Assembly: GCA_014359475.1 (NCBI GenBank)
Contig: JACIZI010000014.1
Location: 22,393-86,392, forward strand
DNA: 64,000 nucleotides
DNA from: Marinobacter sp.
GTDB taxonomy: Bacteria; Pseudomonadota; Gammaproteobacteria; Pseudomonadales; Oleiphilaceae
Direction of reading: 5' to 3'
The stretch's first letter is position 1. Every line of letters starts with the position of its first letter. This document shows positions 1 through 13,709 of the stretch, piece after piece. Both the position numbers and the translations under genes were made by a program. The notes under the pieces are model-generated. The model saw only the letters and a list, made by a program, of their open reading frames with translations, had not been told where the DNA came from and ran no database searches.

Positions 1-224
1 AGAATGGCGCTACTTCGGCCCTGTATTCGGTCGGCCACGCCAAATACCACGGTACCGCCACCACCATTGGCCATGCACACGGCCATCTGAACCACGGTTT
101 TTACCGCGTTGTCCCGACTTTTCAGATCCCACTGTTTGAAATCGAGGTCCTGGTCTTCCAGTTCGTCGGCTATGCAGTGGTCCAGCTCTGGCAACAGAGC
201 CTCGATGTTGGCGGCGGTTCGCAT
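1..224 (-). CDS. AlbA_2/Schlafen-type ATP-binding protein, N-terminal part (BREX-associated)
   Basis: Only the first 74 or so codons are present; the gene runs off the left edge. The reading frame begins at ATG 224, 17 bases after the brxC stop, with an AAGAG ribosome site. It shows the ExxDLDFKxW pattern near residue 24 and an ANGGGGTVVFGV stretch near residue 55, the hallmark of the AlbA_2 (Schlafen AAA_4) domain. Genes of this family are found between brxC and pglX in a common type 1 BREX layout, so it probably belongs to the same operon. The exact role in BREX is not established. Confidence 0.75.
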   Translation of the reverse strand, partial: MRTAANIEALLPELDHCIADELEDQDLDFKQWDLKSRDNAVKTVVQMAVCMANGGGGTVVFGVADRIQGRSSAI

Positions 225-241
225 GATGTCTGTCGCGCTCT

Positions 242-3200
242 TTATTTGACGGAAATCGGACCTTTTTCCAGGGCCGTTTTAAGCTGATCTTTCACTTCTT
301 CCGCCCAGGCATCAACGTCTGCCTCGGTTTTCAGCGTGCGGCGTGGTACCGATACAAACTGGATTTCCGGCTCGCACAACTCCGCTGCCGCGACTGCTAC
401 GTTGTCAAAACGGCTGGGTAGCGCGGCTACCCTGTCTGCGAACATGCCCAGTGAGCATTGGTCCAGGGTGTTCAGTACTTCATCGGTAGACTGAACGGCC
501 ACTTTCGGCTGATCAGCCAGGGTCAGCTTCTGTTCGGACAGTAACTGGTTACGCTGCTCTGGCTCCAGCTGCTTCCAGTTTGCGTCTGCCTCCAGGCGTT
601 TCATGCCCTGTTCGTGCCGGGCCTGGTAGTCCTGATTCAGGGTGTTCAAGGCTTCGCGCAGGCTTTGGGTCAGGCTGGTGATCAACGGGTTGATCGGGTC
701 CGGCTCTTCCAGCAGTTGGCGCTGTTGTTCGATGGTGTCTACCTGGGCACGGTACACCTCGGCATCGGCCAGAGCGGATGCGTGGTTTACCAGGCGTTTG
801 AGAACCATCCAGCTAGGCCAGCGCTGCTGGATTTGTTCTGCCAGTTTCTCCCAATGCTCAATGCTTTGAACGAGTTGTTCCCGGCAGTTATAAAGGGCCA
901 GCAGTTGCTCGTTACCCGTTGTCAGGCGGATATCGTCAAGGAAGCGGGTGTCCGGGCGTTCGGGTTTGGGTGCTTCGCCACCGGCTTTATTGGCCAGGTC
1001 ACTGACTTTCTGCAGGAACGATGGCACGTGCGCCAGTTCTTCGCCCTGCTTGGCGGATACACCCACTTTCTGGAGCACTTTGCGGATCTGGATACGCTGC
1101 GGTGTGGAGACATTGGCGGACTCCACTTTGAACATGGTTTTACCAATGCTCTTGCGCTCCAGTGCGGAAGGCTCGATGGGTTGCCCACGGTCGTCCTGGG
1201 CCCGGATGATTCCGGCCACCAGCAGTACCTGAAGGCCGCCATCCACCGCATCCCGGGACCAGCCGAAATCTTTCCCTTCAAAGTGAGCGCGTATGTCTCC
1301 ACCTTTTTTGCCACCGGCAATGAATCCCAGAACGGCTTTACAGACCGGATTCTTGCCAGGCTCACCATCGTCACCGACGGCTTTGAGAGCATCCGGTGCG
1401 CCTGTCTTCGCTTTTTCGTAGGCTTTTTGCCAACCGCTGTGGTCAGCAATATGGAAGTTGGGGTACAGGCGTTGCAGCGAGTTGTTTGCCGCTTCCAGCA
1501 CCATTTCCTGCAAATTGTTACCGAGGATTTCATTGCCACCACCCTGGAAGACCCGGGCGCCGGAGAAGGCTTCGCTGAGCAATTCCCGGATTTTGCCTTC
1601 GGCGGTCTGTTTGGTGGTTTCCATGGCCGCTTTGGCTTCGGTGCCTTCCGGCGTGTTGGGGGAGCCACGCTTATCCAGAGTGGCGCTGGCCGCTTTGTAA
1701 TCGATCAGGTGATGGCGCAGGTCATCCGCTGAACGCTTGGGGATAAACACAAAAACGGTAGGCGACTGGTTCCCGGCTTGCCGTGCATCGGCCCGAACGG
1801 AGTTTTCATCACTGCTCCAGCCATCACGTACCCACACACAGATACGCTCGTTGGCATCCGCCGGTAGCTGGGCATCAAACACCGGGTAGATATCCCGGGT
1901 AACCTTCGCGTCGCCCTGCATCAGCGACAGTTTGCGCGCGACCTCACCGAACATGCGGCGGATGCGGTCGTCCCGTTCTGCGTGAATGCGATGGGCTTCA
2001 TTGGAGAGCGCGGAACGCTGGCTGAGGAATTCGTCGGTCCAGGCGGAGCTCTCTTCAGTCTGGATGCGGTATTCCTCGCCCACTTTCATCAGCAATTCGC
2101 AATGATCCAGCAGGCCAGGCAGCTTGCTGCGCAGGCTGCTGCTACCACTGGACAGATCTTCTACCAGCAGATCTGCCAGTGAATCGACGTTCGCGCGAAT
2201 GCCGATCTCATTGTTCTGGCCGCCCAGCTTGTTGATCAGAAACACCAGGCCGCAGGCGCGGGCCATCAGGCGCTGGTCTTCCGTGCCTTTTATCCAGCTC
2301 ATGGTTTTTTCATGAACCTTGCGGGGCAGAATTCGGGCCTGCAGCAGTTTGTCTGCGGAATCGAAGTAAAGGTAATCCGCCGGTACCACATGGCCGAGTG
2401 GATCATCCAGATTGGTCTGGATGACTTTGTGAATCATGCTGAGCTGGTTACGCAGCTGACTGTCGGTGCCGGTCTGGTCCAGTATTCTCAGGGTGTTTTC
2501 CCAAAAGCGACGACGCACCGGCAAGATCGGGTAGTCCTGGGGGAAGTAAGGTAGGTCATCCTGCCGGTGGCCAATGGTTGTGCCCGCCAGGTGCCGGGAA
2601 ATTTCGCCCAGGTTGGTTTGAAGAACCTGATCAATCGGCCCTTTGGCTTCGGGCTTTTTGGCGAGAATGACTTGCCGGATAACAGCATCGACATCGGCAT
2701 CAGACAGCTCAACACGGATAGTGAAGCGCCCTTCGAGTTTCTTCAGATTGCTCGTGCCGGTTACCGCTGTCTGGCCAGTGCCAATGAAGAGCAGCTTGCC
2801 ACCGAAGTTTTTACAGCAGGCCTCGACCGCTTCCTGCACTGCAATAGAGCGTTGGCTGTCTTCACCAATGAACTGCTGAACTTCGTCCAGTACGATCAGG
2901 GTAAGCGGGAATTTGCCATCTGTGGTCAATGCCTGGCGAATGGCCTTGAGCATGTCGTCGCTGGAAATGTCCTGAACGAATGGATACAGGTTGTTCAGGG
3001 TTTCCACGCAGGACGCCGGTGATGTAAACAGTGCCGGCTTTGCCTGTACCAGGGCTTCGTGCAGGCCTTCGGCCACGTAGAAGTTATCCAACTCTTCCTG
3101 CCAGTCGTAGCCGTTGGATTCGACACTCTGGCGTACCTGGTCGTAAATGCCTTCGTGCTTCAACCACATCACAAACCGGGCGACCGGGTACTGTTCCGGC

Positions 3201-3679
3201 AGCCCTGCCGATTTGAACAGAATACGCAGTAGCGCAAGCCGTACACTACCGTTCGCGCCGGAGCCCAGGGTTCCGGATGCCGCATGCAAGCCACCGTGGC
3301 GCTTGGCTTGTACGCTCAGCTCTTTGAGGTGTTCACTCACGCCTTGTGGCAGTTTGGCGATGCCCCGGGCAGTAGCGCCGTCTTCAAACTCTGCATCTAC
3401 CCAAAGCGCCCTCAGCATCTTGACCAGATGGGATTTACCAGAACCGTAGAACCCGCTGACCCACACCGCCGGCTGTTGAGCCTGTTCGATGTTCTTCAGG
3501 TAGGTTTCCAGAATGTGGGACATGCCTTTTTCGTACTGGCCGTCACACACGAAAGTCTCCAGCTCGTAACGGAGTACCGCCAGGGCATGGCTTGTGGTTT
3601 CGTCGTTAACACTGGCCACACCTTCGTTGACCAGTTTGCGGGTGGTCGGATCTTTCTGATAAATCTCACGATTCTTCAT
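242..3679 (-). CDS. brxC: BREX ATPase BrxC
   Basis: BrxC is the large P-loop ATPase of BREX, a phage-defence system that methylates host DNA and blocks phage replication. The 1145-residue length fits the family (about 1200). Walker A GFYGSGKSH lies near residue 78 and a Walker B-like segment LIVLDEVQQFIG near residue 265. The N-terminal KDPTTRKLVNEGVASV stretch is typical. The start is ATG 3679, preceded by GAGG; an in-frame TTG two codons upstream is less likely. It follows brxB by 15 bases, so the genes are cotranscribed. It appears intact with no frameshift. Confidence 0.95.
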   Translation of the reverse strand: MKNREIYQKDPTTRKLVNEGVASVNDETTSHALAVLRYELETFVCDGQYEKGMSHILETYLKNIEQAQQPAVWVSGFYGSGKSHLVKMLRALWVDAEFEDGATARGIAKLPQGVSEHLKELSVQAKRHGGLHAASGTLGSGANGSVRLALLRILFKSAGLPEQYPVARFVMWLKHEGIYDQVRQSVESNGYDWQEELDNFYVAEGLHEALVQAKPALFTSPASCVETLNNLYPFVQDISSDDMLKAIRQALTTDGKFPLTLIVLDEVQQFIGEDSQRSIAVQEAVEACCKNFGGKLLFIGTGQTAVTGTSNLKKLEGRFTIRVELSDADVDAVIRQVILAKKPEAKGPIDQVLQTNLGEISRHLAGTTIGHRQDDLPYFPQDYPILPVRRRFWENTLRILDQTGTDSQLRNQLSMIHKVIQTNLDDPLGHVVPADYLYFDSADKLLQARILPRKVHEKTMSWIKGTEDQRLMARACGLVFLINKLGGQNNEIGIRANVDSLADLLVEDLSSGSSSLRSKLPGLLDHCELLMKVGEEYRIQTEESSAWTDEFLSQRSALSNEAHRIHAERDDRIRRMFGEVARKLSLMQGDAKVTRDIYPVFDAQLPADANERICVWVRDGWSSDENSVRADARQAGNQSPTVFVFIPKRSADDLRHHLIDYKAASATLDKRGSPNTPEGTEAKAAMETTKQTAEGKIRELLSEAFSGARVFQGGGNEILGNNLQEMVLEAANNSLQRLYPNFHIADHSGWQKAYEKAKTGAPDALKAVGDDGEPGKNPVCKAVLGFIAGGKKGGDIRAHFEGKDFGWSRDAVDGGLQVLLVAGIIRAQDDRGQPIEPSALERKSIGKTMFKVESANVSTPQRIQIRKVLQKVGVSAKQGEELAHVPSFLQKVSDLANKAGGEAPKPERPDTRFLDDIRLTTGNEQLLALYNCREQLVQSIEHWEKLAEQIQQRWPSWMVLKRLVNHASALADAEVYRAQVDTIEQQRQLLEEPDPINPLITSLTQSLREALNTLNQDYQARHEQGMKRLEADANWKQLEPEQRNQLLSEQKLTLADQPKVAVQSTDEVLNTLDQCSLGMFADRVAALPSRFDNVAVAAAELCEPEIQFVSVPRRTLKTEADVDAWAEEVKDQLKTALEKGPISVK

Positions 3680-3694
3680 GAACAACCTCTTTCC

Positions 3695-4243
3695 TTAATC
3701 CTTGTCTGCGGTTATCGGTACTGCGAGATAGTTCCACCCGTCGTAACCGTCCAATAACCGGTAATTGTTGTTTTCATAGCTGCCGGGAAACAGGACCAAC
3801 AGCCGCCCCTCAACCAGGGGAGCCAACTTATCCACAACGTCTTTGACCTTGAGAAAACCGAAAAGCGAGCCAACACCCTGGACAGCCACTACGGTGTTGT
3901 CGTTTGCATTTGTTTCTTTGAGAACCCGCTCGAACTCGCTCACGATATAGTCCAGATACTTGGGCAAGACCGTGGCCAGCAGGTGCGGCTTCTGGAAATA
4001 GCTCTTTGCGTACCGCTGGGTAGCCAGCCAGCCTGCAAAGGTGTTGGTCAAATCAAACAGAACCCATTCGTGACCCGCCTGCCGGGTAACAATTTCGAAT
4101 TCGTCTGCCCGGGCTCTGAGCCAGCGCTCTTCGTTTTCGTTGTAAACGCAGAAAACCACCCGCTGGGCTGCGGCGGCATCATCCCTCCAGGGGATAGCAA
4201 TGTGCCGTCCGTACGATTGAATCAGGCGCTTAACCCTGCTCAC
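3695..4243 (-). CDS. brxB: BREX protein BrxB (DUF1788)
   Basis: This 182-residue protein matches the DUF1788/BrxB family: a basic N-terminus, the segment WRDDAAAAQRVVFCVYNENEE-like start, and a C-terminal VLFPGSYENNNYRLLDG motif near residue 155 that is characteristic. BrxB is an essential small component of type 1 BREX, of unresolved biochemical role. It starts with GTG at 4243, overlapping the end of brxA by 14 bases, which suggests translational coupling. Confidence 0.9.
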   Translation of the reverse strand: MSRVKRLIQSYGRHIAIPWRDDAAAAQRVVFCVYNENEERWLRARADEFEIVTRQAGHEWVLFDLTNTFAGWLATQRYAKSYFQKPHLLATVLPKYLDYIVSEFERVLKETNANDNTVVAVQGVGSLFGFLKVKDVVDKLAPLVEGRLLVLFPGSYENNNYRLLDGYDGWNYLAVPITADKD

Positions 4244-5018
4244 GCAACCACTCCTGTTCCTGCTGATTGATCAGGTTGGGGAAAAGCACTTCGATCACAT
4301 CCCCCACCCGCTTGTAGGTTATCCAGCCCCTGCGTGACGCCTGCTCGGCCAATTCGATGGTCTTTTCCCGAGAGCAGTCCAGCAGCTTGGTGTATTCCGT
4401 TCTGAACAGGCCTTGTCCGCGCGCACCGGCCAGGTAGCCCAGCAGCAGTGCGTAGGCCGCGCTACCTGCCGTGGGTGCCGCTTGGTTGCGAACTTTCTTG
4501 TTTCGCCCGGTGAGATGCCCGGATTTGGTCCAGCTGGAGTTGATGTTCTGCGCTGTGGATTTCAAAGTAGCTTTGCTGAACCGACCCGGCTCCAGGCTAT
4601 CGATCAGTTCCTCTAGCGACTCACGGGTAATGACTGAGCCTTCGGGAGCCTTGAGAATCATTGGTGCGCTGGCACGGAAAATAGAGTCCCTGGCGTAGGT
4701 AGCCAGCAGCGCCAGCATCGGGCGACCTGCTTCATCTCGCTGCCAGAAATAAAGCAGAGCACGGAATAGCACATGGGCTGTGTCCAGAGAATAAAGCTCA
4801 GCCAGGTGCTTGTAGGTCAGGAGTCGGGTTCTACCAGAGCGTTTGCCCAGACAGTTGTCTTCCTCAATCGCACGTAGGTAATCAGCCTTTGTAGCGTCCG
4901 CACGGTTTACGTAATCGAGCAGAGCTGTGAGCTCGTCCAGCATCATGGTGCGGGAGCTGTGAGTGCCGCCACGCTCAAACCGGAACCCGAAGCGGGCAAG
5001 TTGTTTCTCGTCAGGCAT
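4230..5018 (-). CDS. brxA: BREX protein BrxA (DUF1819)
   Basis: The product (262 residues from ATG 5018) belongs to the DUF1819/BrxA family, a small helical DNA-binding protein of type 1 BREX. The N-terminal FGFRFERGGTHSSRTMML segment, in which the conserved GGxHxxRTMML pattern is seen, is diagnostic. The start at MPDEKQ is preferred because upstream codons overlap the preceding HTH gene; the ATG lies 2 bases before that gene's stop region (stop 5011-5013), giving a coupled overlap. It is the first recognised BREX core gene of the operon. Confidence 0.9.
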   Translation of the reverse strand: MPDEKQLARFGFRFERGGTHSSRTMMLDELTALLDYVNRADATKADYLRAIEEDNCLGKRSGRTRLLTYKHLAELYSLDTAHVLFRALLYFWQRDEAGRPMLALLATYARDSIFRASAPMILKAPEGSVITRESLEELIDSLEPGRFSKATLKSTAQNINSSWTKSGHLTGRNKKVRNQAAPTAGSAAYALLLGYLAGARGQGLFRTEYTKLLDCSREKTIELAEQASRRGWITYKRVGDVIEVLFPNLINQQEQEWLREQG

Positions 5019-5214
5019 TGGCGTTATTCCCGTCGCTGGCACCGCCGCTGCGTACCCAGGCATCTACTTCATCCTTTTTGAACTTCCAGGCTCTGCCGAC
5101 ACGGTGGGCGGGCATTGCTTGCCTATCAATCCACCGGTAAATCGTATCGCCACTTACGCCAAGGTATTTCGCGATTTCACTCACTGACAACCATCGGTCG
5201 TCCAGTTCCGTCAT
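5011..5214 (-). CDS. Excisionase-family helix-turn-helix protein, first gene of BREX operon
   Basis: A 67-residue protein with a single MerR-like HTH_17 domain (LSVSEIAKYLGVSGDTIYRW followed by the wing HRVGRAWKFKKDEVDAWV). Such domains occur in phage excisionases and in small regulators. It overlaps brxA and sits directly downstream of the BREX promoter, so it is most likely an autoregulator of the operon; an excisionase role for the element is also possible. It is not the WYL-type BrxR seen in other BREX loci. Confidence 0.8.
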   Translation of the reverse strand: MTELDDRWLSVSEIAKYLGVSGDTIYRWIDRQAMPAHRVGRAWKFKKDEVDAWVRSGGASDGNNANA

Positions 5215-5289
5215 TTGCTCACTCCCCGCTTTTAGTTTGAGCTTTCACACGCTATGGCCTCCCTGGCGGTGCCCATATGGGTAGGAACC

Positions 5290-5318
5290 AATATATAGCC
5301 TGTGATTACACCTAACAA
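5290..5318 (-). promoter_or_regulatory. Sigma70 promoter of the BREX operon
   Basis: On the minus strand a -35 box TTGTTA (5318-5313) and a -10 box TATATT (5295-5290) are separated by 17 bases. Transcription would start near 5283, giving a leader of about 70 bases before the HTH gene. Prediction by eye only. Confidence 0.5.
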
Positions 5319-5439
5319 CCGTATTGTCAGGCATAGAGCGGAAGTGGCGGGAAAAAAGAGGTTTCTTGAGGGTACTCTCATGGTACGACAGCGAGTGTCG
5401 CCTAACAGGCTGGCGTGAAATTTTATGTGGCGCTGAGGG

Positions 5440-5459
5440 TTCTTTCACATGTGAAAGAA
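5440..5459. promoter_or_regulatory. Palindromic operator 1
   Basis: A perfect 20-bp palindrome with core CTTTCACATGTGAAAG. The identical 16-bp core recurs 41 bp away (centre to centre, about four helical turns), as expected of paired binding sites for a dimeric repressor on one face of DNA. A half-site like CTTTCACA is also seen near 5242. The regulator is unknown. Confidence 0.65.
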
Positions 5460-5477
5460 ATTTCGCTGGGCGGGTTT

Positions 5478-5503
5478 CAAAACTTTCACATGTGAAAGTT
5501 TTG
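5478..5503. promoter_or_regulatory. Palindromic operator 2
   Basis: A perfect 26-bp palindrome containing the same CTTTCACATGTGAAAG core as the one at 5440-5459, extended by AAAA/TTTT flanks. It lies upstream of the rightward TTGACG hexamer at 5516, so it may control transcription to the right as well as BREX to the left. Confidence 0.65.
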
Positions 5504-5704
5504 GGCTGACAGCTGTTGACGGTAGTTATCAGAGGTTGACCAGAAAATTATCAAAATATTGATTTTAAAGGAATTTAAATTTTTATACGGAACGGGCTCT
5601 TTCCGCCCTTTTTGGGCAATTCCAGAGGCAAGGGTTTGAAGTGGACCCCGAAATTTGGACAGGTACCTAAGCTCTGATTCATCATCTCCACAAGGAGGAG
5701 AATC

Positions 5705-5989
5705 ATGAGCAAGAAACGCAAGCAATACAGCGCATCATTCAAGTCCAAAGTCGCCCTGGCCGCCCTCAAGGGCGACCAGACCACATCCGAAATCGCCGCT
5801 CGTTTCCAAATCCACCCTACCATGGTCAGCACTTGGAAGCGCGAGCTGCTGGAGAATGCTTCGGACCTCTTCGAAGGCAAGAAAAAGTTCGGCAAGCAGT
5901 CCAACGAACCCAGTTCTGACGAGCTTTACCGTGAGATCGGTCGACTGACGGTGGAACGCGATTTTTTGTCGCGCAAGCTCGATCAGTAA
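5705..5989 (+). CDS. IS3-family transposase OrfA
   Basis: 94-residue OrfA with the helix-turn-helix typical of IS3 elements (ASFKSKVALAALKGDQTTSEIAARF...MVSTWKRELL) and a C-terminal leucine-zipper-like helix (ELYREIGRLTVERDFLSRKL). It binds the IS ends and, by frameshifting, supplies the N-terminus of the OrfAB transposase. A strong AAGGAGGAG ribosome site precedes ATG 5705. Confidence 0.93.
   Translation: MSKKRKQYSASFKSKVALAALKGDQTTSEIAARFQIHPTMVSTWKRELLENASDLFEGKKKFGKQSNEPSSDELYREIGRLTVERDFLSRKLDQ
5962..5968 (+). promoter_or_regulatory. Probable programmed -1 frameshift heptamer (T TTT TTG)
   Basis: In the orfA frame the codons read GAT TTT TTG, giving the X XXY YYZ slippery pattern. The orfB frame is -1 relative to orfA and is open from 5935, so a slip here yields an OrfAB fusion as in other IS3 elements. 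A_AAA_AAG is the commoner heptamer in this family. The position and frame are seen directly; that slippage occurs is an inference. Confidence 0.55.
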
Positions 5990-6003
5990 GCCGTCAACAG
6001 CGG

Positions 6004-6837
6004 TTGGCGATGATCGAGCGTGGTCATCCCCAAGTCAGCATTTCGCGCCAGTGTGAGCTGCTCAAACTGAGCCGCTCATCGGTGTATTACGTCCCTCGTG
6101 AACAGTGTCAGGAGGATCTGGATCTGATGTATCTGATTGACCAGCAGCACCTGGAAACGCCGTATTACGGCTCTCGCAAGATGCGTGTTTATTTGCAGCG
6201 CAAGGGCCATCAAATAAATCGCAAGCGGGTGCAGCGGCTGATGCGCACCATGGGCATTCAGGCTGTATATCCACGCCCCAGAACCAGCATTCCGGGCGAC
6301 GGGCACAAGATCTACCCGTACCTGCTCAAGGGGTTGAAGATCGACCGCCCCAACCAGGTGTGGGCAACTGACATTTCGTATGTGCCGCTGGCTCGGGGCT
6401 TCATGTATCTGGTCGCCATCATCGACTGGTACAGCCGCAAAGTGTTGTCCTGGCGGGTCTCCAATACCATGGACACAGACTTCTGCATTGATGCCCTGGA
6501 GGAGGCCCTACAGCGCCATGGAACGCCGGAGATCTTCAACACCGACCAGGGTGTCCAGTTCACCAGTGAGGCCTTCACAAACGTTCTCAAAGATCATGGC
6601 ATCCGGATCAGCATGGACGGCAAAGGCTGCTACCATGACAACATCTTCGTGGAACGGCTCTGGCGCAGCGTCAAACACGAGTGCGTCTACCTCACAGCCT
6701 TCGAGGATGGACAGCACTTAAAGCAGGCGCTCCACCGGTACTTCCGGCATTACAATCAGACCCGGTACCACCAAACCCTTGATTACCAAACGCCCGATGA
6801 GGTGTACTACGGGCAACCCATAGCCTTGGCAGCCTGA
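6004..6837 (+). CDS. IS3-family transposase OrfB (DDE integrase catalytic domain)
   Basis: About 277 residues with HTH_21 (near residue 45) and rve integrase core. The DDE triad is visible: TDISYV (first Asp near residue 123), NTDQGVQF (second Asp near 182), and VERLWRSVKHE (Glu near 218), followed by the HYNQTRYHQTLDYQTPDE tail. Independent starts are TTG 6004 or ATG 6010, but the functional product is probably the frameshifted OrfAB. Confidence 0.93.
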   Translation: MAMIERGHPQVSISRQCELLKLSRSSVYYVPREQCQEDLDLMYLIDQQHLETPYYGSRKMRVYLQRKGHQINRKRVQRLMRTMGIQAVYPRPRTSIPGDGHKIYPYLLKGLKIDRPNQVWATDISYVPLARGFMYLVAIIDWYSRKVLSWRVSNTMDTDFCIDALEEALQRHGTPEIFNTDQGVQFTSEAFTNVLKDHGIRISMDGKGCYHDNIFVERLWRSVKHECVYLTAFEDGQHLKQALHRYFRHYNQTRYHQTLDYQTPDEVYYGQPIALAA

Positions 6838-6962
6838 GCCAGGGAAACACTGGGTCATAGCTTAGGGACACCATCAGGTTGTCCAACTGATTGGGTCCAC
6901 CTCAGTTTTCAAGGCTCTGGTTTATCTTATTTCTCGTTGTTTCACACACGAGGATCAAAAGA

Positions 6963-7298
6963 ATGAAAGAGCAGCTAGTACCAACGAAAGCTAGTGATAC
7001 CACCAACAGCATGATCTTGCAGGAACTACATCAACTGAGGACGTTGGTTGAACGGCAAGGACAGTTGAACAAACCAGTTCTTAGCGTTGAAGAATGCGCG
7101 GAACTTCTGGGGCTTTCAACCAGCTACCTCTACCGCCTGACTTCGGAAAAGCGCATCCCATTCTATAAACCGAATGGTAAAAGAATTTTTTTTCATAGAG
7201 ACGAAATTCTCGGCTGGGCTTTATCTGAGCGGATAACACCAGATGGAGAGCTACGGGACACAATTCGCTCTCATGCACACAAAGCCCGGCGCAGATAA
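6963..7298 (+). CDS. Excisionase-like helix-turn-helix protein
   Basis: A 111-residue protein with a central HTH_17 domain (LSVEECAELLGLSTSYLYRLTSEKRIPFYKPNGKRIFFHRDEILGW, residues about 42-86) behind a coiled helical N-terminus. ATG 6963 is chosen because upstream in-frame codons come from the IS end. It sits 12 bases before repA. Such genes in integrative elements are often recombination directionality factors or regulators of rep expression; which applies here is unknown. Its native promoter was probably displaced by the IS. Confidence 0.75.
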   Translation: MKEQLVPTKASDTTNSMILQELHQLRTLVERQGQLNKPVLSVEECAELLGLSTSYLYRLTSEKRIPFYKPNGKRIFFHRDEILGWALSERITPDGELRDTIRSHAHKARRR

Positions 7299-7310
7299 GC
7301 GGTGGCAGGC

Positions 7311-8225
7311 ATGATCGCGGGAAAAGATTTTATTCAATTTATAAACCGGCTAGACCCTAATCTAAGAGAAGGGGCTTTTGCTCACTGGCCAATGAGTATT
7401 CATGGGTCCTTTGATGAGAAACCGCCTGCGCTAAAGTTTCTCCTGCCAGGGATGATATCTGGCTCAGTAGGGGCTCTTGTAGCCCCTGGTGGGGCTGGAA
7501 AGTCGATGCTGGCATTGCAGATGGCCACCTGGCTCGTTACTGGCGCAGATACCTTAGGGCTTGGACCAGCCACAGTGACTAATGCTGCTGTCGCCTATTT
7601 GACTGCCGAAGATCCACTGCTCGTACTAGCGCATCGATTACATGCTCTCGGTCAGCAGTTATCCACAAGGCAACAGGAGTTATTAGCCGAAAACCTCTTT
7701 TTGATGCCACTGGAGGGATTTCGCCCAAATATTGGTTGTAATAGCTGGCTCAGTGCGCTGGAAAGTCTGGCCGGGGAATCTGACTTGTTAATTTTAGATA
7801 CCCTGCGTCGTTTTCATGATGCTGATGAAAATTCCAGCTCGGAAATGTCGGAAATCATCTCAAGATTGGAAGCCATAACTGCTCGAACGGGCTGCTCTGT
7901 ACTGTTTATACACCATGTAAATAAAGGATCCACTCAAACTTTCGGAACCGATCAACAACAGGCAATACGGGGGTCTTCAGTTCTGTCAGATAACGTGAGG
8001 TGGCAGGCGTACTTGGCCCCAATGACTGGAAAGGAAGCGGAAAGCTTTCGAATCAACGAGCAAAACCGGACCAAATACGTTCGGTTCGGTTTGAGCAAGT
8101 GTAATTATTCTGCAGGCCTTCCAAGCGAGAACTGGCTAATTCGATCAGAAGGAGGTGTTCTTCTACCAACTGCGTTACACCGAAACACAGTGCCAATGAG
8201 GAGGCCACGCCGTGCCTCAATTTGA
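7311..8225 (+). CDS. repA: IncQ-type RepA-like helicase (AAA_25 ATPase)
   Basis: 304 residues of the RecA-like RepA helicase family, the hexameric helicase of IncQ plasmids. Walker A APGGAGKSMLALQMA is near residue 60, Walker B LLILDTLRRFHD near 160, and the sensor-like SVLFIHHVNKGS near 195. A GTG three codons upstream (7302) is an alternative start. It overlaps repC by 14 bases. In the element it would unwind DNA from the iteron origin located after repC. No repB-type primase gene is visible in the window. Confidence 0.85.
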   Translation: MIAGKDFIQFINRLDPNLREGAFAHWPMSIHGSFDEKPPALKFLLPGMISGSVGALVAPGGAGKSMLALQMATWLVTGADTLGLGPATVTNAAVAYLTAEDPLLVLAHRLHALGQQLSTRQQELLAENLFLMPLEGFRPNIGCNSWLSALESLAGESDLLILDTLRRFHDADENSSSEMSEIISRLEAITARTGCSVLFIHHVNKGSTQTFGTDQQQAIRGSSVLSDNVRWQAYLAPMTGKEAESFRINEQNRTKYVRFGLSKCNYSAGLPSENWLIRSEGGVLLPTALHRNTVPMRRPRRASI

Positions 8226-9039
8226 CCTCACTCATGTGCGCCATGATCATTATCACTGTCTGGCCCCCGGGCTTTTTAGCACAGCTCGTAACGAGGCGCG
8301 AAAGTCAGGAAAACTGGATGTGGTATATGAATTCAGCGGTGGTAATCGCATTGAATTCTCTGGTCCTGAGTCCTTGGGGGTTACCGAGCTTCGGGTACTC
8401 CAAGGATTGGTTGCAATGGCTGGTCCCGCAGAAACGTCACTTGAACTGCCGGTAGAATCTCCATCACCACTGGGTATGTCGCTTCGATCGATGTTGGAGT
8501 TAAAAGGGTATGCTTCTAACCAATCGGCGATTGCTGTCAAAAGCAGTCTACGTAAACTTGCCTATGAAATCGGGCTATCAAATACGAGAGATACGAATAC
8601 AATCCGAGCTGCCATCGAACGCCTGTGGAAAGTGTCCGTTATCGCTCAGATAAATGGCCGACGAGCAGGTTTTCGACTACTGGCAAATTATTCAAGCAAT
8701 AGCCGAGATGGAAGCCTGTTTGTCGCTTTAAACCCCTTTCTAACAAACGCGGTACTCGGTAACGGTCGACACGTTCGGATCCCGATGGGAGAAATCCGGA
8801 AAATTAGAGACGACCGAACCCGCTTAGTCCATCAATGGCTATGTGCTTGGGTTGATAGCGGTAAATGCCGCCAAGTCTCGTTAGCGAGGGTAAGCAGTGT
8901 TCTCTATCCAGATCCCTGTGGCCCTGAAACACACCGAAAAAGACTCACACGATCACGAAAAGCGTTATTGGAACTCAACGAAATCGGCTGGCAGGCAAGA
9001 GAGTACGCCAAGCAGAAGTTCGCCGTAATGCGCCCCTAA
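8212..9039 (+). CDS. repC: IncQ-type replication initiator RepC
   Basis: The 275-residue product shows two winged-helix regions and the RepC signature RTRLVHQWLCAWVDSGKCRQVSL near residue 205, in the part that binds iterons in IncQ plasmids. It starts with GTG 8212 inside the end of repA, after GAGGAGG. The three iterons begin 4 bases after its stop codon, the expected initiator-origin arrangement. RepA plus RepC here indicate self-contained replication of the excised element. Confidence 0.85.
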   Translation: MPQFDLTHVRHDHYHCLAPGLFSTARNEARKSGKLDVVYEFSGGNRIEFSGPESLGVTELRVLQGLVAMAGPAETSLELPVESPSPLGMSLRSMLELKGYASNQSAIAVKSSLRKLAYEIGLSNTRDTNTIRAAIERLWKVSVIAQINGRRAGFRLLANYSSNSRDGSLFVALNPFLTNAVLGNGRHVRIPMGEIRKIRDDRTRLVHQWLCAWVDSGKCRQVSLARVSSVLYPDPCGPETHRKRLTRSRKALLELNEIGWQAREYAKQKFAVMRP

Positions 9040-9043
9040 TCAC

Positions 9044-9105
9044 TATCACGATATTGGTCCCAAACTATCATGATATCTGTCCCGCGATATCACGATATTG
9101 GTCCC
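9044..9105 (+). repeat. Three iterons, presumed oriV of the element
   Basis: Three direct copies of an 18-bp unit TATCACGATATTGGTCCC start at 9044, 9066 and 9088, exactly 22 bp apart. Copies 1 and 3 are identical; copy 2 has TATCATGATATCTGTCCC. Spacing and location next to repC match the iterons of IncQ oriV (RSF1010 has 20-bp iterons with 22-bp periodicity). RepC binding is inferred. Confidence 0.85.
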
Positions 9106-9166
9106 ACCCAGGTTTAATGAACGCCTTTCATACCAAGGGCTCCAGAGTATTTCAGATTTCGATCTA

Positions 9167-9213
9167 AGATTATCTAAATAATCTACATGCGTGGGCTCGC
9201 TCCTCCCGGAGCC
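9167..9213. other. Two small hairpins beside the iterons
   Basis: AGATTAT and ATAATCT (9167-9173 with 9178-9184) and GGCTC with GAGCC (9194-9198 with 9209-9213) can form stems. IncQ origins carry hairpin primase sites (ssi) near the iterons, so these may be equivalents; the second could instead be a terminator for the integrase gene. Weak evidence. Confidence 0.3.
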
Positions 9214-9226
9214 AGCCCTTGCCATT

Positions 9227-10390
9227 TCAATATCCACTGGAAGGTAGCGGTTCTGATAATACGTCAGGGAACTGGATCATCGCCTCGCGCTGCTTAGTTT
9301 CGATGATATCTGCATATATTTCGGTAGTCCGAAGCTCTGAATGGCCTAGAAGACGTGATACAGAGTAGATATCCACACCCCTGGAAAGCTGTATAACGGC
9401 GAATGTATGCCTGGCACTGTGGAAAGTGATTTTTTTCGTGATCCCGGCCTTCATAGCCCATCTCATCAGCTCCAGGTTGTGCCAGCTGCTATATTTCAGG
9501 CCTTTAAACACCCGGTCCTGTGGATCCGAGGGTGGGCCCATTAGAGACACTGCCGTTTTATTCAGATCCAAGTATTGCAGTCCTTTGGTTTTTTTTTGTC
9601 TGAACACCAATCGATAGCCATCATAAAACCGCTCGACTTCTCTCCAGGTTAGCTTTTGTACATCGGACCAGCGTAAGCCGGTACATGCTGAGAACAGAAA
9701 CGCTTTCTTCAATACCTCATACCGGCATTCGGCTTTCGCCAAAGCTCGTAGCTCGTCTTCCGTGAGGTACACCCGTCGATTATTCTCTGGCTTGATAGTT
9801 TTTACTCGACGGACCGGGTTGTCACGAATGAGACCTTGTTGTTCCGCCTGATTTAAGGCTGCACGAACTTTATTGAAATAAGCGCTTTGAGTATTGGAAC
9901 TCAGAGGTGAGGAGCTTTTGGTTCTAGCCGTGTGGATAAGATAATGGCGAAATGCTTCGAGAAAGGTTTGATCGACCTCCTCAAACGTCAGGTCTGGCAG
10001 CTTGTGGAAAACTTTCAGGTGCTTGAGTGTGGATACCCAAACTGAATGGTTACTTTGGCTTCCTTCTGCCTTCTCATCCGTGATGGACTGGAAATAATCG
10101 AAGAAGCTGGCCTTCAGCTGACTTGTGCCGGACAAACCGTGCTTGCCGGTTTCATATTCATAAAGGCGTTTTGCGCGAATTGCTTCAGCTGCGCGCTCGG
10201 CTTCCTTGTTGTGATGACGCTGCGCAGGCGTTCTGGGTTTGTCATATAGGAACAAATCCAAGGGTTCCCGAGATCGCTTATGCCGGCGCTTGCCAGTCTC
10301 CGGATCTGTGTAGGAACCGCCGTAGTAAACCAGGCGAATCGCCCTTTTCCCATCGCTGTCTGCTTCTCGAACTTCAATGCTGATTTTCAT
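9227..10390 (-). CDS. Tyrosine recombinase (integrase) of the mnmE-inserted element
   Basis: 387 residues from ATG 10390, chosen because GGAG lies 6 bases before it; an ATG four codons upstream (10402) is the alternative. An N-terminal arm-binding region (VYYGGSYTDPETGKRRHKRS) is followed by a SAM-like core-binding domain (about 95-200) and the catalytic domain. Catalytic residues are visible: Arg in GLRWSDV, HSARH, the His of LLGHSELRTTEIY and its Tyr. It reads away from mnmE and would integrate and excise the element at the mnmE 3' end. Confidence 0.93.
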   Translation of the reverse strand: MKISIEVREADSDGKRAIRLVYYGGSYTDPETGKRRHKRSREPLDLFLYDKPRTPAQRHHNKEAERAAEAIRAKRLYEYETGKHGLSGTSQLKASFFDYFQSITDEKAEGSQSNHSVWVSTLKHLKVFHKLPDLTFEEVDQTFLEAFRHYLIHTARTKSSSPLSSNTQSAYFNKVRAALNQAEQQGLIRDNPVRRVKTIKPENNRRVYLTEDELRALAKAECRYEVLKKAFLFSACTGLRWSDVQKLTWREVERFYDGYRLVFRQKKTKGLQYLDLNKTAVSLMGPPSDPQDRVFKGLKYSSWHNLELMRWAMKAGITKKITFHSARHTFAVIQLSRGVDIYSVSRLLGHSELRTTEIYADIIETKQREAMIQFPDVLSEPLPSSGY

Positions 10391-10405
10391 CTTTTTCTCC
10401 ATGTG

Positions 10406-10452
10406 TACCCCGAGAGTCCCCCAAGACCATACTTCGGGGTACTCTCGGGGTA
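10406..10452. repeat. Inverted/direct TACCCCGAGAGT repeats upstream of the integrase
   Basis: TACCCCGAGAGTCCCC (10406-10421) is mirrored by GGGGTACTCTCGGGGTA (10436-10452), which itself contains two tandem copies of the GGGGTA unit. Clusters like this next to an integrase start and the attachment site resemble arm-type integrase binding sites; they may also autoregulate the integrase. Function inferred from position. Confidence 0.5.
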
Positions 10453-10558
10453 AATCATCGAGAAAAATGGAAAGACAAAAACAGCGAGAAAGAACAAAAC
10501 CCTTTATAAACAGTTACTTGATTTACTTTTAGTTGCTGTAGATAACCCTTTTTTTACC

Positions 10559-10582
10559 ACTTCACTTCCCAATGCAAAAACT
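10559..10582 (-). other. Presumed chromosomal attachment site (mnmE 3' end)
   Basis: The last codons of mnmE (encoding FCIGK and stop; TGCATTGGGAAGTGA) coincide with the region where SGI1 and similar elements recombine in trmE/thdF. The integrase gene lies next to it. The element restores the mnmE reading frame. The partner copy is outside the window, so the exact core cannot be fixed. Confidence 0.5.
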
Positions 10583-11932
10583 GCTGAAAATCTTGCCCAG
10601 AAGTTCGTCCGGCGTCAGATGACCGGTGATTTCCCCCAGGGCATCCTGGGCTGCGCGAAGGTCTTCAGCCAGCAACTCTCCGGCCCCGTAACCCTCAAGC
10701 TGGCTCTGCCCCTGAACCAGAAGATCCCTGGCGCGCTGCAGTGCGTCCAGATGCCGGCGGCGGGCAAGAAAGCCGCCTTCGGTGGTGGTGACAAAGCCCA
10801 TGCATTGCTTGAGATGATCCCGAAGCAGGTCGATACCTTCCGCACCTTTTGCGGCAATGCGCAGTACCGGCACCTCTGATCCCCCTGGCTGGTCCAGGCC
10901 GACCTCTTCTCCGGTCAGGTCCACCTTGTTGCGGATCACTGTGAGGGGCGCATTGGCCGGGAGCCGGTCGATGAAGTCGGGCCAGATATCGTGTGGCTCG
11001 GTCTTGTTGGTGGTGGTGGCATCCACCATCAGCAGAATGCGGTCTGCATGGCGGATTTCATCCCAGGCCCGGGCGATACCGATCTGCTCCACTTCGTCCG
11101 GACTGTCCCGCAGGCCGGCGGTGTCAATAATGTGCAGGGGCATGCCATCGATATGAATATGCTCCCTCAGTACGTCCCGCGTGGTGCCTTCAATGGCGGT
11201 CACAATGGCGGCTTCCCGGCCGGCAAGTGCATTGAGGAGACTGGATTTTCCCGCATTGGGCCTACCGGCAATAACCACTTTCATGCCATCCCGCAGAATG
11301 CTGCCTTGCTGGGCCTCTGCCAGAATGGTCTCCACCTGTTCCAGCAGACCCTCCAGGTCCCCGGCGACCTTGCCATCAGCCAGAAAGTCGATTTCCTCCT
11401 CCGGAAAATCAATGGCGGCTTCCACATAAATTCGCAGATGGGTAACGGCGTCCACCAATGCGTCAATCCGCTGGGAAAATACCCCTTGCATGGAGCGTAC
11501 AGCGCACCGGGCCGCCTGTTCGGAGCTGCTTTCAATCAGATCCGCAATGGCTTCGGCCTGGGCCAGGTCCAGCTTGTCGTTCAGGAAGGCTCTTTCAGAA
11601 AACTCGCCGGGCCGGGCCAGGCGGGCGCCCAGTGTGCAGACCTCCCGCAGCAAAAGATCCAGGATCACGGTACCGCCGTGACCCTGGAGTTCCAGTACGT
11701 CTTCGCCGGTGAAGGAGTGGGGATTGGGAAAAAACAGGGCAATGCCTTCATCGATCAGACCAGCTTGGTTATCGAGAAAAGGTCCGTAATGGGCATAGCG
11801 TGGTCGGGGCTCAAACCCGAGCATGCGCCGGGCAATGGCGCCGGCGTCAGGGCCGGATACCCGTACAATACCGACTCCGGCCTGTCCCGGTGCGGTGGCG
11901 ATGGCGGCGATGGTATCAGTACTGTGCATCAT
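10562..11932 (-). CDS. mnmE: tRNA modification GTPase MnmE
   Basis: 456 residues. MnmE with MnmG installs the cmnm5 group on U34 of several tRNAs. The N-terminal formyl-THF-binding domain ([21 protein letters not shown]), the G domain with [16 protein letters not shown] (near residue 222) and DTAGLRD (near 270), and the C-terminal FCIGK motif are present. ATG 11932 (or 11929) is the start; a longer frame reads back into the yidC terminator. It follows yidC with a terminator between them. Its 3' end is the integration site of the element to the left. Confidence 0.97.
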
Positions 11933-11953
11933 GATGTTTCCCCGGAGCACAAA

Positions 11954-11984
11954 CAATAAAGGCTCCACCGGGGAGCCTTTATTG
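11954..11984. terminator. Bidirectional hairpin terminator between yidC and mnmE
   Basis: A perfect 13-bp stem (11954-11966 with 11972-11984) with a 5-base loop; arms begin CAATAAAGGCTCC. T-rich ends flank the GC core on either strand. It would separate the rpmH-yidC transcript from mnmE. Confidence 0.8.
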
Positions 11985-12005
11985 AGAGTCAGGCCTTCAG
12001 GCCGG

Positions 12006-13709
12006 TCAGTATTTCTTTTTGGCAGTTTCCGCTTCAATCTTGCGGGTAATGTACCACTGCTGGGTAATCGACAGAATATTGTTGGTCAGCCAGTAGAGTA
12101 CCAGACCTGCCGGGAACCACAGGAAGAACACGGTGAAGACCACCGGCATCAGTTTCATGATCTTGGCCTGCATGGGATCCGGGGGAGTCGGGTTGAGACT
12201 CATCTGGATCATCATGCTGGCACCCATGAGGATTGGCAGTATGAAATAAGGATCCATGACAGACAGATCGTGTATCCACAGGATAAAGGGCGCATGACGG
12301 AGTTGTACACTCTCGAACAGGACCCAGTACAGGGAGATGAACACCGGCATCTGGACCAGAATTGGCAGGCAACCGCCCAGGGGATTGATCTTCTCACGCT
12401 TGTACAGGGCCATCATTTCCTGGGACATGCGTTGACGGTCATCCCCGTACAGTTCCTTGAGCCGGGTCAGCTGCGGAGCCACCGCCCGCATCTTCGCCAT
12501 GGAACGGTAACTGGTGGCGGACAGGTGGAAAAACACCGCCTTGACCAGAACCGTCAGCAGAATGATAGCGACACCCCAGTTGCCCACCAGGCCGTGGAAC
12601 CATTCCAGAATGATAAACAGCGGCAAGGCTATAAAGAACAGGAAACCAAAATCCACCGTGCGGTCAAGGTTGGGGGCTACCGCTTCCAAACGATCGATGA
12701 TCTTGGGTCCGACATAGGCCCGGGCACCGACTTCGGCAGTCTCACCCGGGGCTACGGAGGTTGTCGGATAAACAAAGCCCATCACATAGAGGTTGCCACG
12801 GCGGGTGGTCTGAAACTGGGCCGGAGTGTCCTGGTCCGGGATCCAGGCAGTCAGGAAATAGTGTTGCAGGAATGCCAGCCAGCCGCTGGTGACCGTACGG
12901 TTGACGGGATTCTCGCTCAGGTCGGAAAAATCGTACTTTTCGTAGGGATCTTCCGGTGTACTGACCACCAGACCGAGAAATGCCTGAATACCAAACGAAT
13001 TATTGGTCGTCGGATCGCCCGACTGGTCGCGCACAATCTTGCCTGTCATGTTGGCCTGGAATGGCTGATCTGAGTTGTTATCGATCAGATAACGGACATC
13101 CACTTCATAACTGTTGCGTTGTAAAGTAAAACGCTTGGTAATGGTGACACCAGTGTCGGTGGTGTAGGCCAGGTCGATGGTTAATTCGTCCTGGCCTGGC
13201 TGCAACTGATAAGCGGTCTGACTGGCTTTGAATACCGGAGAAGCACCGTTACGGCGGCTGTCGATGCCGTCCCTGCCGATCAAGCCGCTTTCCAGGATGT
13301 ACGTTCGGCTGGGGCCGGTGGTCAGCAGCTTCAGCGGTTCTTTGCTGTTCAGCGATTTGTCGTAGTTGAGCAACGAACTCTCGACCAGATTACCGCCCAC
13401 CGGATTAATTTTCAGCTGCAGGACATCCGTAGTCACAGTAATCAGGTTGGCAACGGATGCAGCCGGGTTGCTGCTGGCCTCAGTGGCCGTTTGCGGAGTG
13501 GTGAACTCACCTTCATTGCTTTGTGAACCGCTGGCCGGAATTGAAAATTCGCCCTGTGCTGCTTCCGCTGCGGTGGATTCCGCCGGGGCTGCCTGTTGAG
13601 AAGTTTGTGTGGTAGCCACTGGCTGGTTGTAATCTTCGTTCCAGGCAAGAACCATCAGATAACTGACAATCGCCAGCCCGGCAAATAAAACAATGCGTGG
13701 AATATCCAT
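12006..13709 (-). CDS. yidC: Membrane protein insertase YidC
   Basis: 567 residues. YidC inserts proteins into the inner membrane alone or with SecYEG. An N-terminal TM anchor ([21 protein letters not shown]), a large periplasmic beta domain (about 60-350) with a low-complexity Gln/Ala/Ser linker, and the conserved 60KD_IMP core follow, including [22 protein letters not shown] and [12 protein letters not shown]. The C-terminus is Lys-rich. It follows yidD by 4 bases in the rpmH-rnpA-yidD-yidC unit. Confidence 0.98.

What the first reader, a model, noticed from the sequence alone, without database searches (positions are those of the whole stretch)
1..10574. BREX defence plus IncQ-type replicon in an mnmE-integrated element
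Integrase, iterons with RepA/RepC and a BREX operon are side by side at the SGI1-type mnmE site. Defence islands usually do not carry an IncQ-type replication module, so this may be a family of integrative elements that replicate after excision and spread BREX. The pieces are seen directly; that they form one mobile unit is inferred.
Basis: partly seen in the sequence, partly recalled or inferred. Interest (0 to 1): 0.75.

Follow-up and report, generated by a model that had tools for sequence, protein, structure and literature searches.

The report
BREX-carrying mobile island with plasmid-type replicon
A Marinobacter genome carries, at the end of the mnmE gene, a mobile DNA island of the type that hitch-hikes on conjugative plasmids; it bears an anti-phage BREX system and, unusually for this family, a replication module of the kind found on small IncQ plasmids.

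Summary
The window holds the mnmE-side end of an integrative mobilizable island in a Marinobacter-genus genome: tyrosine integrase, IncQ-type repA-repC with three 22-bp-spaced iterons and an oriV box, and the start of a complete BREX type 1 operon that continues on the same contig to pglX, pglZ and brxL. A second att core lies on contig C10 beside phytH, the native downstream neighbour of mnmE. Contig C59 adjoins the left end (matching 8-bp IS66 duplication) and holds a resolvase and MobI. Upstream of xis-repA-repC lie an AcaCD-like operator and an exact 22-bp IncC-type parS site: a relative of the IncC-mobilized MGIVchHai6/SGI1 islands with a different replicon. The set mnmE-int-repC-repA-xis recurs in Ectothiorhodospira marina and Aeromonas simiae (the latter fully bounded, with type I restriction-modification), and these integrases form one clade. 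BREX is interchangeable cargo: a second Marinobacter genome has it beside repA-repC; A. simiae and six genus relatives with this integrase family do not. In this copy an IS3 separates operator from operon, so helper-induced excision and replication are probably impaired. Excision, replication and transfer are inferred, not shown. New variant of a known kind.

The parts
10562..10579 (-). attachment-site core TTTTGCATTGGGAAGTGA at the 3' end of mnmE (mnmE-side end of the island)
   Evidence: the same core (TTYTGYATYGGSAARTRA) bounds islands in five related genomes
10562..12037 (-). mnmE (trmE), host gene, reading frame kept intact
9227..10402 (-). tyrosine integrase (Phage_int_SAM_5 + Phage_integrase), same strand as mnmE
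   Evidence: relatives 51-85% identical in 38 loci directly downstream of mnmE (L098-L136 without L127)
9044..9106 (.). three iterons (TATCACGATATTGGTCCCA type), 22-base period, part of the presumed oriV
9161..9177. oriV box GATCTAAGATTATCTAA, with similar boxes downstream of repC in an IncQ plasmid and in other repC-bearing elements; followed by a GC-rich inverted repeat at about 9191-9218 (seen by eye)
8212..9039 (+). repC, IncQ-type replication initiator
   Evidence: PF06504 3.5e-89; 52.7% identical to the best IncQ plasmid RepC
7302..8225 (+). repA, AAA_25 RecA-like helicase of IncQ type, overlapping repC by 14 bases
   Evidence: 43% identical to the RepA of IncQ plasmid pK433-qnrS
6891..7298 (+). 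HTH_17 / excisionase-family protein (xis-like), first gene of the xis-repA-repC operon; likely ATG at 6963
   Evidence: homologues convergent with the integrase in relatives
5642..6899 (+). IS3-family insertion sequence (orfA 5705-5989, orfB 6004-6837; family judged by eye) between the operator and the xis-repA-repC operon; absent from sister element G099
5600..5627 (+). AcaCD-like (FlhDC-family activator) operator, TTTCCGCCCTTTTTGGGCAATTCCAGAG
   Evidence: identical in G099 (L093:5716); published core in PMC5058578
5480..5501 (.). 22-bp parS-like site, AAAC-TTTCACATGTGAAA-GTTT
   Evidence: ParB site of IncC plasmids in PMC10954446
5443..5456 (.). second copy of the 14-bp parS core, without the AAAC/GTTT flanks
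5011..5214 (-). 67-aa HTH_17 protein at the head of the BREX operon
   Evidence: 88% identical beside BREX in G099 and G049
4230..5063 (-). brxA
   Evidence: PADLOC BrxA 3.4e-112
3695..4243 (-). brxB
   Evidence: PADLOC BrxB 9.7e-81, Pfam BrxB 3.3e-08
242..3685 (-). brxC
   Evidence: PADLOC BrxC E=0; NF033441 1.6e-294
1..224 (-). start of a Schlafen/AlbA_2 + HATPase_c_4 gene; continues outside the window (C6:20895-22616), followed by pglX, a 1081-aa gene, HEC-01A/B, Septu ptuA/ptuB, pglZ and brxL (C6:5999-20744)

Best explanation
An integrative mobilizable element related to the mnmE(trmE)-specific MGIVchHai6 and SGI1 islands. Integrase recombines an 18-bp core at the 3' end of mnmE. Entry of an IncA/IncC-like conjugative helper would supply an FlhDC-family activator that binds the operator upstream of xis-repA-repC. 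Xis would then drive excision; RepC would bind the three iterons and, with the RepA helicase and a primase from elsewhere (host or helper), replicate the circle from oriV; MobI would recruit the helper's relaxase and mating apparatus; the helper's ParB would bind the parS-like sites and help segregate the copies. The cargo is a complete BREX-1 operon with Septu and HEC-01 genes nested inside it. In this copy an IS3 element lies between the activator site and xis-repA-repC, so the copy is probably locked or poorly inducible. Shown by sequence: gene set, att copies, iterons and box, operator and parS matches, MobI, recurrence. Inferred: excision, replication, helper dependence, transfer, defence activity.
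For: Second att core: C10:53761-53778 and C10:51784-51801, one mismatch each, same orientation as the mnmE copy, beside phytH, which is convergent with mnmE and ends within 10 bases of its stop in relative G019. Cores at both ends bound islands in G046, G020, G045, G084 and G033. C59 adjoins C6: the 8-bp duplication GATCTGTC flanks the IS66 on both sides. C59 carries a resolvase (84-89% to four relatives), a lipoprotein (62-67% to the same four) and MobI (PF19456, 2.4e-19). The set mnmE-int-repC-repA-xis recurs in L098 and L099, each with three iteron copies at 21-22-base spacing. Integrases of the repC-bearing islands form one clade, support 100/100. An IncQ plasmid shares the 22-base iteron period and a similar oriV box. 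The operator scores 17.7 against a best of 15.3 in window 14001-64000. The parS core occurs 44 times in 29 of 39 integrase loci against 0.003 expected for unrelated sequence. A. simiae island bounded by two exact cores, 16.9 kb. Published precedents, passages read: SGI1 replication (PMC7826253, PMC7433901), MobI islands at trmE (PMC7449626), parS hijacking (PMC10954446).
Against: The island is split over contigs C6, C59 and C10; the C59-C10 join is not shown, so C10:53779-77144 being the same element is inferred. No RepB primase homologue was found in C6:1-34500, C59 or C10:40000-77144 (tblastn with the IncQ plasmid ORFs), so the IncQ replicon is incomplete. The IS3 insertion breaks the promoter arrangement. 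The likeness of our box to the IncQ plasmid's own 23-base version is modest: 7 mismatches, as good in 8 of 2000 shuffles. In L098 the operator match beside xis is weak (9.5) and the best-scoring site there (19.5) lies inside repA, so the matrix, built from four published sites, gives false positives. repA of the A. simiae island is split over two frames. No helper plasmid was sought in this genome. Nothing here shows excision of this island.
Confidence: 0.82

Rival explanations
1. A relic: an IncQ-like plasmid fragment captured by an ordinary mnmE island; repA-repC no longer replicates anything and serves at most regulation, or nothing.
For: No RepB primase homologue in the pieces searched; IS3 between operator and operon; repA split over two frames in the A. 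simiae copy; the island lies beside a decayed 2-kb sister remnant.
Against: repA, repC, iterons and oriV box are intact here and the arrangement is kept at 47-55% RepC identity in two other genera; the integrases of these islands form one clade; the operator upstream is identical in G099.
Confidence: 0.13
2. The BREX operon is a separate chromosomal defence island that happens to abut the mnmE element.
For: BREX 89-98% identical at PglZ occurs in four other genus genomes, three of which had no hit in the RepC search; in G049 it lies at least 1.3 Mb from mnmE.
Against: MobI and the resolvase backbone lie beyond BREX and att cores lie beyond that beside the native neighbour phytH; G099 has the same BREX-xis-repA junction, 86.9% identical over 741 bases.
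Confidence: 0.04
3. A self-sufficient integrative plasmid that excises and replicates without any helper.
For: It has its own integrase, xis-like gene, rep genes and presumed oriV.
Against: It carries MobI, and its operator and parS sites imitate those of IncA/IncC plasmids; SGI1 and MGIVchHai6 depend on helpers (PMC7449626, PMC7433901, passages read). Relaxase and mating genes were not sought systematically; own proteins gave no BLAST hit to the TraN/TraG of the G033 island.
Confidence: 0.08

Closest known systems
MGIVchHai6-like trmE-specific islands (Rivard et al. 2020, PMC7449626; passages and section 12 read)
   Same: 3'-mnmE(trmE) site, integrase convergent with an HTH_17 xis, MobI, AcaCD-type operators, tandem integration, anti-phage cargo; the paper reports type 1 BREX in yicC-specific relatives
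   Different: There the operon is xis-86(DUF927)-85; here it is xis-repA-repC with a presumed oriV, and repA-repC sit between int and xis (the paper notes only that variable DNA is sometimes inserted there). BREX is here at mnmE.
SGI1 (PMC7826253, PMC7433901, PMC10954446; passages read)
   Same: mnmE site, rep operon under an activator site with iteron oriV, HTH_17 gene ahead of rep, parS mimic near the AcaCD site
   Different: SGI1 rep is Rep_3 (IncN2/N3-like), with MpsA/MpsB and traN/traG/traH. TraN/TraG were not found here by BLAST with the G033 copies; MpsA/MpsB and TraH were not tested.
IncQ plasmid replicon (pK433-qnrS, L162; typed IncQ2 by PLSDB)
   Same: repA-repC order with the same 14-base overlap, 22-bp-period iterons directly after repC, a similar oriV box
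   Different: No RepB/MobA homologue found here; integrated in the chromosome
GISul2 (guaA island; PMC5704250 Table 1, passages read)
   Same: IME with RepA and RepC
   Different: guaA site; the review's main text does not hold the word IncQ. G090 here resembles it by site
BREX type 1
   Same: brxA, brxB, brxC, pglX, pglZ (type B), brxL
   Different: Septu, HEC-01 and a 1081-aa gene sit between pglX and pglZ

Membership tests
MGIVchHai6-like / SGI1-like IMEs at mnmE (trmE) | insertion at the 3' end of mnmE with direct core repeats at both ends | tested here: met
   left copy on a different contig, join not shown
MGIVchHai6-like / SGI1-like IMEs at mnmE (trmE) | tyrosine integrase with a convergent HTH_17 xis | tested here: met
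   homology to the MGIVchHai6 or SGI1 integrase themselves not tested
MGIVchHai6-like islands | MobI gene | tested here: met
   C59:3013-3615, PF19456 2.4e-19; C59 linked by the IS66 duplication
MGIVchHai6-like islands | xis-86(DUF927)-85 operon | tested here: not met
   xis-repA-repC instead (DUF927 in relatives); so it is a relative, not a canonical member
MGIVchHai6-like islands | oriT upstream of mobI | tested here: inconclusive
   an IS256-like sequence (judged by eye) starts just upstream of mobI at the end of C59; oriT not sought further
IncC-mobilizable islands | AcaCD-type operator upstream of xis | tested here: met
   but with IS3 between operator and xis in this copy
IncC-mobilizable islands | helper-dependent excision and transfer | not testable with these tools
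   needs culture work
SGI1 proper | Rep_3 replicon | tested here: not met
   RepC (PF06504) in its place
SGI1 proper | TraN/TraG | tested here: not met
   no BLAST hit of C6 or C10 proteins to the G033 island's TraN/TraG; the unresolved gap is not covered
SGI1 proper | MpsA/MpsB and TraH | not tested
   no search made
IncQ replicon | RepC initiator + RepA helicase + iterons of about 20 bp at a 22-bp period | tested here: met
IncQ replicon | RepB primase | tested here: not met
   the IncQ plasmid's ORFs hit only the repA-repC region in C6:1-34500, C59 and C10:40000-77144
BREX type 1 | brxA, brxB, brxC, pglX, pglZ, brxL | tested here: met
BREX type 1 | phage resistance and site-specific methylation | not testable with these tools
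   needs experiment

The most novel reading that the evidence does not exclude
In mnmE islands the operon slot under the helper-activator operator is a plug-in replicon socket: Rep_3 in SGI1, IncQ-type RepA/RepC-oriV here, and by analogy DUF927 in MGIVchHai6-like islands may be an unrecognized post-excision maintenance module. In addition the defence operon starts back-to-back with the xis-rep operon across a region holding parS mimics (BREX here and in G099, type I R-M in A. simiae), so the helper's ParB and activator could switch the island between defence and mobility. Against the DUF927 part: deleting gene 86 or 85 did not change mobilization of MGIVchHai6 (PMC7449626), though maintenance after excision was not what that assay measured.
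Probability: 0.3. Interest if true: 0.72.

Novelty: new variant of a known kind. Interest (0 to 1): 0.55.

Why it matters
It indicates that helper-hijacking islands can exchange whole replicons while apparently keeping the same control sites (activator operator, parS mimic) and integration site, and that one such backbone carries a large BREX/Septu/HEC-01 defence block. The parS core of IncC plasmids in 29 of 39 integrase loci, nearly all beside mnmE, suggests that dependence on IncA/IncC-like plasmids is widespread in marine and environmental Gammaproteobacteria, and it gives a direct test of whether replication after excision is a general step in these islands.

Tried and rejected
Rejected: C10:182-199 as the left att (3 mismatches to the exact own core; by my arithmetic about 2.5 such hits are expected in this genome; C10:1-8600 lies beside what looks like an integron integrase with cassettes, judged by eye). 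mnmG as the flank of the left att: mnmG lies at C10:45528 but the cores lie beside phytH. PglZ PF08665 as a whole-genome BREX test (4 of 35 genomes hit): rejected as a control, because the island's own PglZ scores only 17.1 bits, below the 25-bit cut-off, so that search could not see this type; replaced by the own PglZ protein in 124 genus genomes, BrxA/B/C tblastn in 52 loci, BLASTP against six relatives and tblastn on 61 kb around the A. simiae island. The viral-contig scan gave one weak hit (25%). The integrase in the plasmid collection gave no match at 60% identity or more (316 records). Joining C10's right end to C59/C6 failed: C10 ends in a sequence shared with C37 and C23. Whether the 67-aa HTH protein corresponds to gene 85 of MGIVchHai6 was not resolved.

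Print: searches gave no listed paper that, by its listing or the passages read, describes an IncQ-type RepC in an mnmE/trmE island. Several lists were capped (15 of 135, 12 of 26, 12 of 20). PMC7826253 says in general that IMEs may encode RepA or RepC. The library holds only CC0/CC BY/CC BY-SA papers; supplementary files were capped at 0 and not tried. IncQ, IS-family and gene names given 'by eye' are recalled, not from a call.


Full report
What is there. The window is G000:C6:22393-86392; its left edge lies 22.4 kb from the left end of an 86-kb contig. Reading left on the same contig gives the Schlafen/AlbA_2 gene, pglX, a 1081-aa gene, HEC-01A/B, Septu ptuA/ptuB, pglZ and brxL, then a 251-aa protein, a PDDEXK nuclease, a cold-shock-domain protein and an IS66 (by eye) at the contig end. 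This is a complete type 1 BREX set (PglZ type B). The host genus is Marinobacter, judged from named records that coincide with its G-handle relatives.

One unit. In five related islands of the genus the core TTYTGYATYGGSAARTRA occurs exactly at the mnmE end and again 22 to 34 kb away. In this genome that pattern, with up to two mismatches, matches six places against two for the reversed control. The only matches with one mismatch or fewer are the mnmE copy and two on C10 (51784-51801, 53761-53778), all in the same orientation. C10:50793-51728 beside them is phytH, which follows mnmE directly and convergently in G019. The 2 kb between the two C10 cores looks like a decayed sister island: its end sequences resemble the G046 island ends and a toxin-like gene in it is 91-99% identical to genes at the far ends of the G046, G084 and G045 islands. 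The neighbour of C6 is C59: the IS66 is flanked by GATCTGTC on both sides. C59 carries a resolvase, a 135-aa protein, a lipoprotein and MobI; the first three have the strand and order of the relatives' islands. An AcaCD-like site also lies at C10:76673. C6, C59 and C10:53761-77144 add up to about 60 kb. The C59-C10 join is not shown.

The replicon. RepC is 52.7% identical to the best IncQ plasmid RepC; 844 of 72,556 plasmid records have a match, none at 60% or more. RepA is 43% identical to that of pK433-qnrS. The iterons have the 22-base period seen in that plasmid. The box GATCTAAGATTATCTAA lies 121 bases after the repC stop; with at most four mismatches it was found near repC in 9 of the 11 repC loci examined, the own one (from which the pattern was taken) and the IncQ plasmid included; the two misses were L097 and L092. 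Turned round, the plasmid's 23-base version matches ours with 7 mismatches, as good in 8 of 2000 shuffles. No RepB-like primase was found in the pieces searched. RepC is rare: 5 of 163 genomes in the family, own included, and 5 of 369 in a class sample, own included. Several of the other hits lie beside different integrases; in G090 the element follows guaA (by eye) with VirB5/TrbL-like genes, as in GISul2.

The family. A scan of GTDB contigs with the integrase alignment gave 52 loci. In 41 of 52 mnmE lies directly upstream; one more, L127, begins at the core. Of the 52, RepC is found in 2 (L098 Ectothiorhodospira marina, L099 Aeromonas simiae), DUF927 in 21, TraN in 5, and RepA without RepC in 2 (L121, L130), within flanks of at most 10 kb and often less. 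Integrases of own, L098 and L099 form one branch with support 100/100 in a tree of 36 rows (of the 52 loci, L120, L127, L131 and L136-L149 are not in it). The L098 contig ends just upstream of xis, so its cargo is unknown. The A. simiae island is bounded by two exact cores (16.9 kb). It carries int, repC, a repA split over two frames, xis, a type I R-M set (by eye), a resolvase 74.5% identical to ours, and a HipAB-like pair (by eye); none of the own BREX proteins hit it.

Control sites. A matrix from four published AcaCD sites puts its best hit in window 1-10574 at 5600-5627 (17.7); the best in window 14001-64000 is 15.3. The same 28 bases stand in sister G099, 64 bases ahead of the xis ATG; L099 has a site of 17.8 upstream of xis, L098 only a weak one of 9.5, with its best hit (19.5) inside repA. 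PMC5058578 gives the AcaCD core as GCCCAAAATGGGC, a -10 box 22-24 bp downstream, and for S004 an ATG 66 bp downstream. Here the IS3 (5642-6899) sits between operator and operon. The palindrome TTTCACATGTGAAA occurs at 5443 and 5484, the latter with AAAC/GTTT flanks at 5480-5501. PMC10954446 reports that IncC ParB binds such flanked sites and that SGI1 mimics them; the 14-bp core alone was not bound. The core occurs in 29 of 39 integrase loci (44 copies; 0.003 expected for unrelated sequence; control palindromes at most 1 copy; the loci are related, some nearly identical, so they are not 29 independent events) and seven times in the first 50 kb of IncA plasmid pRA1.

BREX as cargo. The own PglZ has relatives (89-98%) in 4 of the other 123 genus genomes searched. 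In G099, contig C24 holds BrxA/B/C at 97-99% next to xis, RepA and RepC at only 52-58% (the RepC match is the 46 residues before the contig end), and contig C68 holds PglX (82%), PtuA/B, PglZ and BrxL. The block and the replicon therefore have different histories. G099 is 72% complete and shows no close integrase, so its insertion site is unknown. The six genus genomes with related integrases are not among the PglZ hits. In G049 the block lies at least 1.3 Mb from mnmE.

How it most likely works, and what is inferred, is set out in Best explanation. The literature supplies the SGI1 and MGIVchHai6 precedents (passages, plus section 12 of PMC7449626). PMC8409611 names IncFII RepA and TrfA as alternative replicons in dusA and yicC relatives. 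The words RepC and IncQ do not occur in the main text of PMC8409611, PMC7433901 or PMC9035990, nor in PMC7449626 by the counts.

Verdict. A real mobile island, bounded on both sides though not yet closed, in a known family, with a replicon not seen in print for mnmE islands in the searches made.

Noticed in passing
C10:51784-53778 (L008, outside the window): A 2-kb decayed sister island seems to lie in tandem between two att cores next to phytH; similar remnant genes follow mnmE directly in G120 (L064).
   Followed up: partly
L073/L135 (Marinobacter lutaoensis T5054, G033): An SGI1-like island with TraN, TraG and (by eye) FlhDC-like genes at mnmE, followed in tandem by the start of a second island.
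   Followed up: partly
L121 and L130 (Salinimonas chungwhensis, Alteromonas indica), about 17.7-19.4 kb: mnmE islands with an IncQ-like RepA whose overlapping partner is a 256-aa protein; the L121 copy has no Pfam or NCBIfam match: perhaps a third kind of initiator.
   Followed up: partly
29 of 39 integrase loci (L098-L136): The 14-bp parS core of IncC plasmids is conserved exactly in distant environmental islands, with five copies in L121 and L130 and seven in L129.
   Followed up: yes
L091 (G090), L095 (G402): repA-repC with an IncQ-like oriV beside another kind of integrase and VirB5/TrbL-like genes; in G090 directly after guaA (by eye).
   Followed up: partly
window 5356-5395 and 10423-10462: A 40-base imperfect repeat around GGGTACTCTC ahead of the integrase and upstream of the BREX side: possible integrase arm sites.
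   Followed up: no
C10:1-9749 (L006): An integron-type integrase beside what looks like a cassette array, on the same contig as mnmG.
   Followed up: no
C10:54623-65511: An RND efflux pump with TolC-like protein and two TetR-like regulators, phospholipase D-like and LpxR-like genes (all by eye) lie inside the inferred insertion.
   Followed up: no
L044 (G044), just after mnmE: The first bases after mnmE (about 28) match our island's int-side end and then diverge; contig ends 357 bases on.
   Followed up: no
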